Shown piece by piece: positions 60,111 through 64,000 of a DNA stretch of 64,000 bases (the stretch's first letter is position 1; the number at the start of each line of letters is the position of its first letter). The notes under the pieces are model-generated. The model did no database searches. It was not told the origin of the DNA and worked only from the letters and a program-made list of their open reading frames with translations. A program made the position numbers and the translations under genes. Source of the DNA: Lacrimispora xylanolytica (GTDB taxonomy: Bacteria > Bacillota > Clostridia > Lachnospirales > Lachnospiraceae); the NCBI RefSeq assembly GCF_026723765.1, contig NZ_CP113524.1, forward strand, positions 1,287,001 to 1,351,000, given 5' to 3'.

Positions 60111-60150
60111 TAGTAGAAACTTTTCATAATTGAAAGGAGTCAAACATCCT

Positions 60151-61374
60151 ATGGATTGTTATGCAAAACAAGGATATCCCGACGGCTTCGACCGTAACGG
60201 TACATCCTACCCATGGGAGCCTGCTATGGGCTTTGATATGTCTATGAGCCCCGGTACGGTAATCCGCCCTGATATGCCTCTTGGCTCAGGCCCGGCAAGG
60301 ACCAATGATCCAGTACCAGCTCCCATACCATTGAGCCGCCAGGATATTTCTGTTGGCCCATGTTCCTGGAACCAAAGACCATGCTGTAACGTATCAAACA
60401 GCGCTGCAAATAATTGTACAATGAAATGTCCGGAAAGACCAAGCTGCGTAATGCCGGCAAAATGTCCGGAGAGACCAAGCTGCGTAATGCCGGCAAAATG
60501 CCCGGAGAGACCAAGCTGCGTAATGCCGGCAAAATGCCCGGAGAGACCAAGCTGCGTAATGCCAGCAAAATGTGTAGAAAAACCAAGCTGTGTGATGCCA
60601 GTAAGATGTCCGGAGAAACCTTCTTGCGTAATGCCAGCAAGAGTGATGCCAGCAAAATGTGTAGAAAAACCCTCATGTGTGATGCCAGCAAAATGTGTAG
60701 AAAAGCCATCCTGCGTAATGCCAGCAAAATGTGTTGAGAAGCCTTCCTGCGTAATGCCAGCAAAATGTGTAGAAAAACCCTCTTGCGTAATGCCAGCAAA
60801 ATGTGTAGAAAAGCCTTCCTGCGTAATGCCAGCAAAATGTGTAGAGAAGCCCTCCTGCGTAATGCCAGCAAAATGTCCAGAGAAACCCTCCTGTGTGATG
60901 CCGGCAAGATGTCCAGAAAAGCCTTCCTGTGTGAAACCGGCAAGATGTCCGGAAAGACCATCTTGTGTAATGCCAGCAAAGTGTCCAGAGAAACCTTCTT
61001 GTGTAATGCCAGCAAAGTGTCCGGAGAAACCATCTTGTGTGATGCCGGCAAGATGTCCAGAAAAACCTTCCTGTGTAAAACCAGCAAAATGTCCAGAAAA
61101 ACCAAGCTGCGTGATGCCGGCAAAATGTCCTGAGCCCTCATTCACATCTCCAGCTACGAGTCCCTGCTGGTCTCCAGCTCCAAACGTATGTCCGGGCTGG
61201 TGTCCGCCTCCCGCTGCTGAAGCAGCTACCGAATGCATTGACCAATATCCAGTTGGAATGGCTTATGTGCCATGGCAGAACTGGCAGCAGGTTTATTCTG
61301 TTGAAACAGCAATAAATATGGGTACAATTTTCCCTGATTTATTTAAACCATTTACGATGGGAGGGTGCCGCTGA
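60151..61374 (+). CDS. cotJA: CotJA-type spore coat protein with a long cysteine-rich repeat array
   Basis: A 407-residue spore-coat protein. The C-terminal 40 residues (YVPWQNWQQVYSVETAINMG, then TIFPDLFKPF) are the CotJA domain. Between a Pro/Gly/Asp-rich start and this domain lie 19 full copies of a 12-residue unit of the form K/R-C-P/V-E-K/R-P-S-C-V-M/K-P-A, plus partial units, giving nearly 40 cysteines. Ordinary CotJA is about 80 residues, so this is a large expansion. Disulfide cross-linking in the coat is likely (inference). ATG 60151 has GAAAGGAG. The stop overlaps the cotJB start (TGATG). Confidence 0.85.
   Translation: MDCYAKQGYPDGFDRNGTSYPWEPAMGFDMSMSPGTVIRPDMPLGSGPARTNDPVPAPIPLSRQDISVGPCSWNQRPCCNVSNSAANNCTMKCPERPSCVMPAKCPERPSCVMPAKCPERPSCVMPAKCPERPSCVMPAKCVEKPSCVMPVRCPEKPSCVMPARVMPAKCVEKPSCVMPAKCVEKPSCVMPAKCVEKPSCVMPAKCVEKPSCVMPAKCVEKPSCVMPAKCVEKPSCVMPAKCPEKPSCVMPARCPEKPSCVKPARCPERPSCVMPAKCPEKPSCVMPAKCPEKPSCVMPARCPEKPSCVKPAKCPEKPSCVMPAKCPEPSFTSPATSPCWSPAPNVCPGWCPPPAAEAATECIDQYPVGMAYVPWQNWQQVYSVETAINMGTIFPDLFKPFTMGGCR
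60421..61134 (+). repeat. Tandem 36-base coding repeats in cotJA
   Basis: About 19.8 units of 36 bases with two main subtypes (CPE and CVE), in blocks: four near-identical CPER units, then six CVEK units, then mixed CPEK/CPER units. The block pattern shows recent local duplication. A partial unit (RVMPA) after the sixth copy marks an unequal event. Confidence 0.9.
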
Positions 61375-61709
61375 TGAGTTGTAATATGAATTGTAACATG
61401 GATTGTAACATCGATTGTAACATGGATTGTAACATGGGCAATACCATGGGCAGTAACGTGGATTGCGATATGTTATTAAAACATGTTTACCAAGCCAGTT
61501 TTGCATTGGATGACGTGGTATTGTATCTTGACACTCATCCCTGTGATAAGGATGCATTAAACTTTTATTATTATGTTTCAGATTTAAGAAGAAGAGCAGT
61601 TGAGGCGTATGAAGAGCAGTGTGGCCCTCTGATGACAGATGGTGTTATGGATAAAAATTATTGGACCTGGATTAATGATCCATGGCCATGGGAAGGAGTG
61701 TGCGGCTGA
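61374..61709 (+). CDS. cotJB: Spore coat protein CotJB with Cys-rich N-terminal repeats
   Basis: A 111-residue coat protein. Residues about 35-111 are the CotJB domain (LLKHVYQASFALDDVVLYLDTHPCDKDAL, YYVSDLRRRAVEAYEEQCGPL, WTWINDPWPWEG). The first 33 residues are Asn/Met/Cys/Asp repeats (NMNCNMDCNIDCNMDCNM) encoded by short DNA repeats; they are an extra over usual CotJB. The ATG overlaps the cotJA stop, and its own stop overlaps the cotJC start (TGATG), so all three are coupled. Confidence 0.88.
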   Translation: MSCNMNCNMDCNIDCNMDCNMGNTMGSNVDCDMLLKHVYQASFALDDVVLYLDTHPCDKDALNFYYYVSDLRRRAVEAYEEQCGPLMTDGVMDKNYWTWINDPWPWEGVCG

Positions 61710-61825
61710 TGTGGAGATATGAAAAAAGATTACAGTATCCGGTAAACATTACCACTCCCAATCCCAAGATTGCCACTTTCATTATGAGTCAGTACGGCGG
61801 GCCTTATTGTAACAGCAGATAAGTT
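61709..61825 (+). pseudogene. cotJC: cotJC, interrupted after about 33 codons
   Basis: The first 33 residues (MWRYEKRLQYPVNI, then PNPKIATFIMSQYGGP) match the start of CotJC, a manganese-catalase-like coat protein of about 190 residues. After QYGGP the sequence leaves the family (expected next D-G-E-L) and reads YCNSR-stop. The rest of the gene is not in the window. A serine recombinase gene begins, on the other strand, at 61863, so the break is the edge of an integrated element. Whether the gene is rebuilt by excision in the mother cell is an inference. Confidence 0.85.
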
Positions 61826-61860
61826 TTCACAAAAGAACCCTGGTTCTACTGGTTATAGTA
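61795..61860. other. Putative attachment-site half (att) at the cotJC junction
   Basis: The element edge lies within or just after TACGGCGGGCC of cotJC. About 30 bases further is a palindrome AGAACC-CT-GGTTCT (61834-61847), and the recombinase stop is at 61863. Large serine recombinases act on such short palindromic sites beside their own gene, so this is the likely attL or attR. Confidence 0.5.
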
Positions 61861-61862
61861 CT

Positions 61863-63341
61863 TTAATAATAGAAGAACCTCACCGTATTACGCTCCTTAT
61901 CATAAACGATTCTTTTTACAATAGTCCTTAAAGCAGTCCCTTTAATCGTGTTATCGGTATCTGGGTCGGATAATATTTCATAAGCACTTTTGATTTTGAA
62001 CAGCTGCCGGCTGTTTTTCTTACCGACATTATCAACCAGTTTTCTTTTTATATCATTATATTGTCTGTCTAATTCCATTCTTTCGCTCTCTAAGCGCTCT
62101 TTGCTGCATTTATATTCCTCTATGGAATCAATTCCTTTTTCGTATGCTTCCTTAATTCTTGCCAGCTTAGCCGCATTCCTCAGACGGGCTGCTTTATTTT
62201 TTTCTGCTTCGTCATCCTTTATTAAATCTGGCTTCTTTTTATATTCACATTCTTGTTCCCCAAAATCAAGGACATTTTTTAAGGACTCCAGAATAAGAGT
62301 CTCTGCTTTGCTTACGGTAATACTACAGGATTGGGAGTGAGTCCCCTTGGCATACCGCCAGCATTGAAAATAACCATTTTTAAGATTTGTTTTACCAGCT
62401 CTGTTGCACCCCAGGCTTGCCCCGCAATAACCACAAGTCAGGAGACCTGAGGCCCAATGCCTGCAATCGGAGCTTTCTCTTCTGTTTCTGGGGCGAAATT
62501 CCCTTTGAAGCCGGCTCTGATTGTCATGAAAGACAGAGGTCACGGAGCTTCTTACTTCATGAGACCCATGAAAGGATATGTCTTTCCATATGACAATCCC
62601 GTTATAAAACTGATTGGTCAATATACGTTCGATGGAACGTCTGTCAAATGAATTTCCTCTCTTGGTCAAATACCCTCTTTCGTTCGCTTCTCTGGCAATG
62701 GAAGATAAATCCATGCCGTTATGGTAGGATTGGTGAATGAATTCCACAATTTTATATTCTTCCTCCTGAATAAGAAACGGCTTTCCACCTCCCCGGGCAG
62801 TATAACCAAGGCAAGGGGTAGTCTGATATCCTTCCCTTAGGGCCTTTTCTGTCATGCCCCGCGTTACCTCTCCGGAGAGATTAAATGAGTAGTACTCATC
62901 AAACCATTCAATAATGCTTTCAATCAAACGTCCGAACATGCCTTCCATAATAGGCTCTGATACACTTTTGATGGTTACCCCGCATTTCTTACGGAGAACA
63001 CTTTTGTAAAAGGTACTTTCCTCCTGGTTTCTTGCAAATCTGGAAAATTTCCATAGATAAAGATACTGAAAGGGAGAGGGCTGTGATTTTGCAATGGAAA
63101 TCATTCGCTGAAATTCTTTCCGATTATCAGCACGGCGGCCGCTTACTCCTCTTTCTTCTATAAAAATATATTCTTTTGGAATGATAATACCATCTGCTTT
63201 TGCAGCCTTCATAATTTCTCTTACCTGAGCAGCTGGTGATAATTCAGTCTGATCATTGGTGCTTACCCTTACATAAGCAGCCCCGGTTTCATTGGATTCA
63301 TATCTTTTCAATCTATAATCACTTCTTTCTGCTTGCCCCAT
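61863..63341 (-). CDS. Large serine recombinase
   Basis: Site-specific integrase/excisionase of about 490 residues. Order: resolvase N-terminal catalytic domain (YVRVSTNDQTE with the nucleophile Ser, RGVSGRRADNRKEFQRMI, LWKFSRFARN), recombinase domain (GYTARGGGKPF, REANERGYLTKRGNSF, ILTNQFYNGI), zinc ribbon (CGYCGASLGC ... FQCWRY ... SCS), and a coiled coil rich in Lys/Glu/Arg. The start is uncertain: ATG 63341 is used here, ATG 63380 is possible and TTG 63311 has the only weak ribosome site. Its 3' end is about 60 bases from the cotJC break. Confidence 0.9.
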   Translation of the reverse strand: MGQAERSDYRLKRYESNETGAAYVRVSTNDQTELSPAAQVREIMKAAKADGIIIPKEYIFIEERGVSGRRADNRKEFQRMISIAKSQPSPFQYLYLWKFSRFARNQEESTFYKSVLRKKCGVTIKSVSEPIMEGMFGRLIESIIEWFDEYYSFNLSGEVTRGMTEKALREGYQTTPCLGYTARGGGKPFLIQEEEYKIVEFIHQSYHNGMDLSSIAREANERGYLTKRGNSFDRRSIERILTNQFYNGIVIWKDISFHGSHEVRSSVTSVFHDNQSRLQREFRPRNRRESSDCRHWASGLLTCGYCGASLGCNRAGKTNLKNGYFQCWRYAKGTHSQSCSITVSKAETLILESLKNVLDFGEQECEYKKKPDLIKDDEAEKNKAARLRNAAKLARIKEAYEKGIDSIEEYKCSKERLESERMELDRQYNDIKRKLVDNVGKKNSRQLFKIKSAYEILSDPDTDNTIKGTALRTIVKRIVYDKERNTVRFFYY

Positions 63342-63403
63342 GGAAAATGGCGAAACAAGTACAATCCATGTCACATACATTTTATCAGGAAGGGGCGGAG
63401 AAT

Positions 63404-63562
63404 ATGAATAAAATGCCGGTAATAGAAAATTACATAGAAATAAATGGTAAAACGATTCTTATAGATTCATTGCCAAAGGAAAAAAGAGAGGAAATAGCAG
63501 AAGTGCTACAGGACAAATTTATGGAATCCATGGGCTATCAGCGTATTAAGACACTAAAATAG
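63404..63562 (+). CDS. Small element-encoded protein, unknown
   Basis: A 52-residue protein beginning MNKMPVIENYIEINGKTI and ending GYQRIKTLK, with a helical acidic middle. It is divergent from the recombinase gene with about 20 to 60 bases between starts, and AAGGGGCGGAG precedes the ATG. I do not recognise it firmly. Small proteins beside large serine recombinases can be recombination directionality factors (SprB, for example, is about this size), so that role is worth testing; there is no sequence proof. Confidence 0.5.
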   Translation: MNKMPVIENYIEINGKTILIDSLPKEKREEIAEVLQDKFMESMGYQRIKTLK

Positions 63563-63575
63563 GTTAAATGGAGGA

Positions 63576-63605
63576 AGCCGGCAGAATGATACCATCCTGC
63601 CGGCT
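63576..63605. terminator. Hairpin after the small element protein
   Basis: AGCCGGCAG / CTGCCGGCT, 9 base pairs, without a clear T-run; a weak terminator. Confidence 0.45.
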
Positions 63606-63818
63606 GAGTATGAAAAAGTTTTGAATAAAAGGGTTATTACCTTCTATACATGTTAATATACAGGTTATATGTGTTGATAATTTGTAGAAAATGTGATGTT
63701 TTAGTGAAATAGATGATGCAAATGGTGGAGTCATTTCCTCCAAGGAATAGGATTGTATCAAAGGGGCCAAAATGTAATGAGTAGAGAAAATTTGATGTGG
63801 GATTAAAGGAGGAAAAAC

Positions 63819-64000
63819 GTGAAAAGGACAGTGGTATTTGACTTTGATGGTGTGATCCATAGCTATAAACAGCGTTACGTAAGTGCGGAAGTGATACCGG
63901 ATGAGCCGGTAGAAGGAATCAGGGAGGCCATCCATAGCATCAGAGCTGCAGGCTATGACGTAGTGGTCGTCTCTTCCAGGGCATCAAGTGCAGAAGGAAA
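63819..64000 (+). CDS. HAD-family hydrolase (3' end cut)
   Basis: A GTG-started frame after AAAGGAGG, open to the window end (60 codons seen). VVFDFDGVIHSY is the HAD nucleophile motif I (DxD), followed by PDEPVEGIREAIHSIRAAGYDVVVVSSRAS with motif II (SSR). The shape matches small HAD hydrolases found in phages and mobile elements. It is part of the element inserted in cotJC. Confidence 0.75.
   Translation, partial: MKRTVVFDFDGVIHSYKQRYVSAEVIPDEPVEGIREAIHSIRAAGYDVVVVSSRASSAEG

What the first reader, a model, noticed from the sequence alone, without database searches (positions are those of the whole stretch)
61709..64000. Spore-coat gene cotJC split by an element with a large serine recombinase: possible sporulation-excised element
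cotJA and cotJB are intact and coupled to a cotJC start that keeps 33 family residues and then diverges exactly at QYGGP. The recombinase gene ends about 60 bases away. Known precedents are skin in sigK and SP-beta in spsM, where such elements leave in the mother cell to rebuild the gene. A coat catalase gene is needed only in the mother cell, so precise excision there would cost nothing to vegetative cells. I know of no described example for cotJC in this group, but cannot exclude one.
Basis: partly seen in the sequence, partly recalled or inferred. Interest (0 to 1): 0.9.

Follow-up and report, generated by a model that had tools for sequence, protein, structure and literature searches.

The report
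Excisable recombinase element splitting cotJC
A spore-coat gene in a Lacrimispora bacterium is cut in two by a small DNA element that most likely leaves during spore formation to rebuild the gene, and relatives carry the same gene cut at this and other places.

Summary
The rest of cotJC lies just past the window end, on the same strand; the insert is 3410 bp. Joining the halves at the shared GG gives a 202-aa CotJC without stops. The insert encodes a large serine recombinase, a 52-aa ORF (candidate directionality factor), a HAD-like protein, a PdaC/DUF3298 protein and a 51-aa ORF; no phage structural gene was recognised. This cotJC copy is interrupted in 18 of 25 genus genomes. Both halves show purifying selection (median dN/dS 0.036 and 0.022). 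The recombinase diverged in step with an unlinked gene (Mantel r 0.93, n 11; 0.74, n 12). In the L. aerotolerans draft the element is a separate contig ending at the att core on both sides. Related phage contigs carry a joined attP. In other Lachnospirales cotJC is cut at further sites, up to three cuts in one gene, and related recombinases also split sleC. Against: an intact cotJC paralog exists here, and no joined copy of this species' gene was found. Excision in the mother cell is inferred, not shown.

The parts
60130..61374 (+). cotJA, with a long Cys-rich tandem-repeat region (start codon uncertain)
   Evidence: Pfam CotJA E 4.6e-16; repeats
61371..61709 (+). cotJB (start codon uncertain)
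   Evidence: Pfam CotJB E 9.6e-29
61709..61797 (+). cotJC 5' part, codons 1-30 up to the core; the chimeric frame goes on to a stop at 61820-61822
   Evidence: Mn_catalase positions 1-32; junction
61796..61797 (+). attL core GG (within GGCGGGCC 61796-61803); partner attR core at genome C1:1352206-1352207, outside the window
61796..64000 (.). left part of the 3410-bp element; it continues to genome C1:1352207, where the cotJC 3' part begins (to C1:1352727)
61863..63380 (-). large serine recombinase (505-aa ORF; real start probably further in, since homologs begin near residue 24)
   Evidence: Pfam; PHROG integrase E 2.7e-80; alignment A1
63352..63384 (+). conserved block GAAACARGTACAATCYRTGTCACATACATTTTA before the 52-aa ORF; SpoIIID-like box and sigma-E-like -10
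   Evidence: present in 15 of 16 genus site-I elements scanned
63404..63562 (+). 52-aa ORF, candidate recombination directionality factor
   Evidence: homologs in 14 of 20 site-I elements compared and beside the integrase in 3 viral contigs; no known family
63819..64000 (+). HAD-like protein (116 aa), cut by the window end
   Evidence: Pfam HAD_PNKP E 5.5e-7

Best explanation
A 3.41-kb element, probably derived from a prophage but now without phage structural genes, sits at codon 30 of one of two cotJC genes. Its large serine recombinase recombines attL and attR at a GG core, most likely when the neighbouring 52-aa protein is made in the sporulating mother cell. That rebuilds cotJC behind cotJA-cotJB and releases a circle; the forespore keeps the split copy, so nothing is lost to the next generation. 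Shown from sequence: the split, the sites, the restored frame, conservation, vertical inheritance in the genus, and an assembly branch in a sister species that fits a circle. Inferred: timing, role of the 52-aa protein, need for the product.
For: 3' part found, frame restored at the core; composite 90.6% identical over 202 aa to a naturally continuous gene. Interrupted in 18 of 25 genus genomes. dN/dS 0.036 and 0.022 for the halves, 0.079 for the recombinase. Mantel r 0.74 (n 12) and 0.93 (n 11, G008 left out) with unlinked cotJC-B. Element contig of L. aerotolerans DSM 5434 ends at the 5-bp core on both sides and overlaps the attR contig by exactly 95 nt. Joined attP in related phage contigs. 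Conserved regulatory block in 15 of 16 elements, like the sigma-E/SpoIIID control of the skin RDF in C. difficile (passages of PMC5025042). Nearest solved relative by profile is the SPbeta recombinase YokA, E 3.4e-20.
Against: An intact paralog with its own cotJA and cotJB exists in the same genome. No full-length joined copy of this species' gene among the 120 listed of 6921 hits: best full-length match 91%. The block before the 52-aa ORF has two mismatches to the published SpoIIID consensus in the window's own element (one in 13 others), and lacks a recognisable sigma-E -35. dN/dS values rest on finite pairs only (32, 39 and 12 of 45, 45 and 36), synonymous sites being saturated. Arm symmetry of the window's own attP is weak: 89 of 2000 shuffles reach it. 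A tandem copy, as in G001, could also make the assembly branch.
Confidence: 0.77

Rival explanations
1. A decayed prophage remnant has simply broken this cotJC copy; the gene is dead and the paralog does the work.
For: An intact paralog is present; the element has lost phage structural genes; 2 of 25 genus genomes show no type-A copy.
Against: Both halves are kept in frame without internal stops and with low dN/dS; the recombinase keeps its conserved residues and is inherited vertically.
Confidence: 0.12
2. The element excises at low frequency in any cell, as a small mobile element or satellite, without developmental control; rebuilding cotJC is a by-product.
For: The L. aerotolerans assembly suggests a circular junction in an ordinary sequencing culture (growth state unknown). 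Relatives are integrases of phages. G008 shows replacement by a different element.
Against: Vertical inheritance in the other 11 genomes compared; conserved SpoIIID/sigma-E-like block; the related recombinases found here lie mostly in cotJC and sleC (74 of 79 loci assigned to cotJC, sleC or an amidase gene).
Confidence: 0.1
3. Assembly artefact.
For: None found.
Against: The genome is one contig; the same-species genome G110 has the same arrangement at 98.4% identity over 5824 bp; other single-contig genomes show split genes (G002, G009, G012, G015, G049, G159).
Confidence: 0.01

Closest known systems
skin element in sigK (Clostridioides difficile; CD1231 recombinase, CD1234 RDF)
   Same: Large serine recombinase element in a mother-cell gene; small acidic RDF of 53-72 aa class; RDF under sigma-E and SpoIIID (PMC5025042 passages; sizes in PMC10747680 passages)
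   Different: Other gene, other recombinase family, far smaller element here; excision not shown here
SPbeta in spsM (Bacillus subtilis; SprA/YokA and SprB)
   Same: Prophage recombinase of the same broad family (nearest solved relative) rebuilding a spore-envelope gene (PMC4191935 passages)
   Different: SPbeta is a full phage; the element here has five ORFs
gin in gerE (Bacillus cereus ATCC10987)
   Same: Non-phage element with serine recombinase in a sporulation gene (PMC5595907 passages)
   Different: gin is 28.6 kb with three recombinases; here 3.4 kb with one
yin in yabG (Clostridium botulinum V73)
   Same: Clostridial sporulation gene interrupted by an excisable element (PMC10747680 passages)
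   Different: Prophage-like and reported as unique to one strain; here genus-wide
phi027 of C. difficile R20291
   Same: Its attR lies next to a CotJC homolog (PMC11222575 passages)
   Different: The homolog is described as a whole 678-bp ORF outside the prophage, not a split gene

Membership tests
Sporulation-gene intervening element (skin/SPbeta/gin kind) | A sporulation gene split with both halves intact, in frame after recombination at a shared core | tested here: met
Sporulation-gene intervening element (skin/SPbeta/gin kind) | Element encodes its own site-specific recombinase next to an end | tested here: met
   stop 66 bp from the core
Sporulation-gene intervening element (skin/SPbeta/gin kind) | Element encodes a directionality factor | tested here: inconclusive
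   52-aa ORF conserved beside the recombinase, no homology to a known RDF
Sporulation-gene intervening element (skin/SPbeta/gin kind) | Excision and circle formation | tested here: inconclusive
   assembly branch at the core in L. aerotolerans; attP in phage relatives; tandem copy not excluded
Sporulation-gene intervening element (skin/SPbeta/gin kind) | Excision confined to the sporulating mother cell | not testable with these tools
   needs cultures; only a conserved SpoIIID/sigma-E-like block
Large serine recombinase | Resolvase catalytic domain, Recombinase domain, zinc ribbon | tested here: met
   invariant residues in A1 include R38, S40, R114, R117 (catalytic roles recalled)
Intact prophage | Phage structural or lysis genes within the element | tested here: not met
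   five ORFs, only an integrase and weak HAD matches in PHROGs
CotJC (Mn-catalase-type coat protein) | Mn_catalase family sequence | tested here: met
   both pieces match PF05067; continuous ortholog matches solved Mn catalases, e.g. 1jku E 3.8e-12

The most novel reading that the evidence does not exclude
In Lachnospirales cotJC is a gene assembled by DNA excision. Separate serine-recombinase lineages, from phages to stripped elements of about 2.5 kb, occupy different sites in it (near codons 30, 62-68, 98, 136 and 170, several next to presumed metal-ligand codons). Up to three sit in one gene, and in some genomes another splits sleC, so one mother cell would have to remove several elements to make working late-sporulation proteins.
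Probability: 0.58. Interest if true: 0.93.

Novelty: new variant of a known kind. Interest (0 to 1): 0.84.

Why it matters
If true, programmed DNA excision in sporulation is not a handful of curiosities but a recurrent feature of late spore genes in a large order of gut and soil Clostridia. It would show a series from phages to a domesticated 3-kb remnant, offer a compact natural recombinase system, and mean that apparent cotJC and sleC pseudogenes in many commensals may be functional split genes. It makes testable why phages settle in mother-cell genes and why hosts keep them.

Tried and rejected
Artefact: rejected, since the arrangement recurs in a same-species genome and in several single-contig relatives.

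Dead gene: judged unlikely from dN/dS, but synonymous sites are largely saturated, so the ratios are rough.

Joined copy of this species' own gene in the protein collection: none among the 120 hits listed of 6921. Joined site-II attP in viral contigs: 0 hits with one narrow pattern. Solved relative of the 52-aa ORF: best E 0.075, unconvincing.

phi027 as an earlier split cotJC: not borne out by the passages read. PMC11318856 and PMC8008629 were searched for catalase, spore coat and cotJ: no occurrence. PMC10083194: the two passages shown lie in the reference list.

G018 (cotJC read through at a contig edge with one extra C; no element in its assembly) and G016 (a contig starting where site-II attB and attR diverge) would fit coexisting forms but are not used as proof. 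Three loci with a piece cut on both sides were left out of the multi-cut count: L049 (contig end), L053 and L055 (relics).

Full report
What is there. The window is G000:C1:1287001-1351000 of a single-contig genome of 4,516,221 bases. The genus is Lacrimispora: the same-species genome G110 has a contig of 3,532,345 bases, the length of the Clostridium sp. 12(A) contig whose recombinase is 100% identical, and records of L. xylanisolvens, L. amygdalina and L. celerecrescens carry the closest named relatives. At the window end cotJA and cotJB run into cotJC, which keeps its family sequence to SQYGGP and then reads YCNSR and stop. A Mn_catalase search of the whole genome gave three matches: this 5' piece, a 3' piece at C1:1352173-1352667 on the same strand, and an intact paralog at 3066935-3067492 with its own cotJA and cotJB.

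The joint. attL reads AGTCAGTAC-GG-CGGGCCTTATTG and attR TTTTTGAACTCA-GG-TGGACCCGATGG. Joining at GG gives an uninterrupted 202-aa CotJC, 90.6% identical over 202 aa to the naturally continuous gene of G006. The element is 3410 bp from core to core. It holds the recombinase, a 52-aa ORF, a HAD-like protein, a PdaC/DUF3298 protein and a 51-aa ORF. In PHROGs the recombinase matches an integrase family (E 2.7e-80), the HAD protein has weaker matches, and the other three have none. G+C is 0.393, against 0.459 and 0.431 in the flanks.

The genus. One search lists 25 genus genomes. I classed their type-A cotJC: interrupted in 18 (G000-G004, G008-G010, G012, G013, G015, G016, G019-G023, G110), continuous in 4 (G006, G007, G011, G014), read through at a contig edge in 1 (G018), not found in 2 (G005, 82% complete; G017). 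G015 is cut only at site II; G008, G010 and G016 at sites I and II. For G021 only the element contig and the 3' side are in the assembly. Of 13 site-I elements of the genus measured, 11 are 2.5-3.4 kb; G008 has 5.1 kb and G001 a 9.3-kb array with three recombinase copies. Over 45 pairs from 10 split loci the median dN/dS is 0.036 for the 5' part (32 pairs finite) and 0.022 for the 3' part (39 finite); for 9 recombinases, 36 pairs, 0.079 (12 finite). Recombinase distances follow those of the unlinked cotJC-B gene: Mantel r 0.74 for 12 genomes and 0.93 for the 11 without G008, p 0.00005 in both. So the split has passed down with the chromosome; G008 carries a replacement whose recombinase pairs with that of [Clostridium] clostridioforme AGR2157.

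Signs of movement. The L. aerotolerans DSM 5434 record holds the element as a separate contig of 3417 bp (L072); the locus taken from G021 contig C39 lies within it letter for letter. Both its ends are the 5-bp sequence GGTGG at the att core, and it overlaps the contig with attR by exactly 95 nt, as a branch in a k = 96 assembly graph would leave (recalled). The integrated form alone should give no branch there; a circle would, and so would a tandem copy. Relatives of the recombinase occur in viral contigs, many of phage size. Of 82 viral loci (80, 2; not all independent) 15 carry cotJC pieces and 13 sleC pieces. A joined attP is clear in L197, L198, L202 and L216 and probable in L213 and L271 (judged by eye). 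For the window's own element the predicted arms match at 12 of 20 positions, reached by 89 of 2000 shuffles, so its own symmetry is weak evidence.

Control. In C. difficile the skin recombinase is not mother-cell-specific, and its RDF CD1234 depends on sigma-E and SpoIIID (passages of PMC5025042). Here the 52-aa ORF follows GAAACARGTACAATCYRTGTCACATACATTTTA in 15 of 16 genus elements scanned; G008 lacks it. The box differs from the published SpoIIID consensus KRTAACARK at one position in 12 of the 15 and at two in this species' elements and in L. aerotolerans; CATACATT resembles a sigma-E -10 (recalled); I saw no clear -35. Homologs of the 52-aa ORF occur in 14 of 20 site-I elements compared and beside the integrase of three viral contigs, which look like one phage.

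Beyond this element. Of the 79, 48 carry cotJC pieces and 24 carry sleC pieces, none both; 2 near-identical ones abut an Amidase_3/CwlD-like gene; 5 are unassigned, one of them L072. SleC was identified by E 3.1e-85 to PDB 9h68; its pieces end or start near residue 305-309 in most rows, and both halves flank the element in 5 loci. In this genus sleC is continuous in this genome and cut near residue 306 in G006. CotJC is cut near codon 30 (I), 62-68 (II, at least two recombinase lineages), 98 (G222), 136 (III) and about 170 (L117). A piece cut on both sides, hence two or more cuts, is seen in 21 loci; leaving out three artefacts or relics and pooling repeats of one genome leaves 16 records. Examples: Clostridium sp. 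MCC353, three pieces within 13.4 kb; Blautia parvula; Roseburia sp. 1XD42-69; G040, four pieces on three contigs. On a tree of 97 recombinases (quick method, long branches flagged) targets cluster: 12 changes against 42.5 in shuffles. In 196 order genomes of at least 90% completeness 118 match PF05067; in the printed, cut list I count by eye 50 genomes with a partial piece, drafts included and not checked one by one. Sites I-III lie within about five codons of E35, E65 and E136, which I take for metal ligands (recalled; positions).

Known or new. In the passages read, known cases lie in sigK, spsM, spoVFB, spoVR, gerE and yabG. Nine searches of the open library listed no paper that, by title, abstract start or the passages I opened, describes a split cotJC or sleC. 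Most listed papers were seen in the listing only, and subscription papers are not held.

Verdict. The kind of system is known; the gene, the stripped element, the several cuts in one gene and the breadth are new as far as searched. That the element can leave is well supported; that it leaves in the mother cell to make CotJC is likely but untested.

Noticed in passing
window 60424-61130: CotJA carries a long array of 36-base repeats coding Cys-rich units (KCPEKPSCVMPA-like), and CotJB starts with CNMDCN-type repeats at 61379-61449.
   Followed up: partly
G000:C1:2138038-2147085 and other places: The genome has ten matches to the large serine recombinase domain PF07508, four within 9 kb; whether others split host genes was not examined.
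   Followed up: no
L055 (G007), 3.8 kb into the oriented locus: G007 has a continuous cotJC-A followed about 2 kb downstream by a relic attR with part of a second 3' piece and the element's HAD, PdaC, 52-aa and 51-aa genes, without the recombinase: a possible record of repair or loss.
   Followed up: partly
L035 (G001): Tandem array: three identical-length recombinase copies and two copies of the cotJC 5' piece in one split gene.
   Followed up: no
L279 (G006:C2:375000-391500): sleC of G006 breaks near residue 306; its 3' part was not found in the 16.5 kb fetched.
   Followed up: partly
L158, L159, L168 (G208, G127, G113): In another family the site-I recombinase lies at the attR end in the opposite orientation, so orientation at this site is not fixed.
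   Followed up: no
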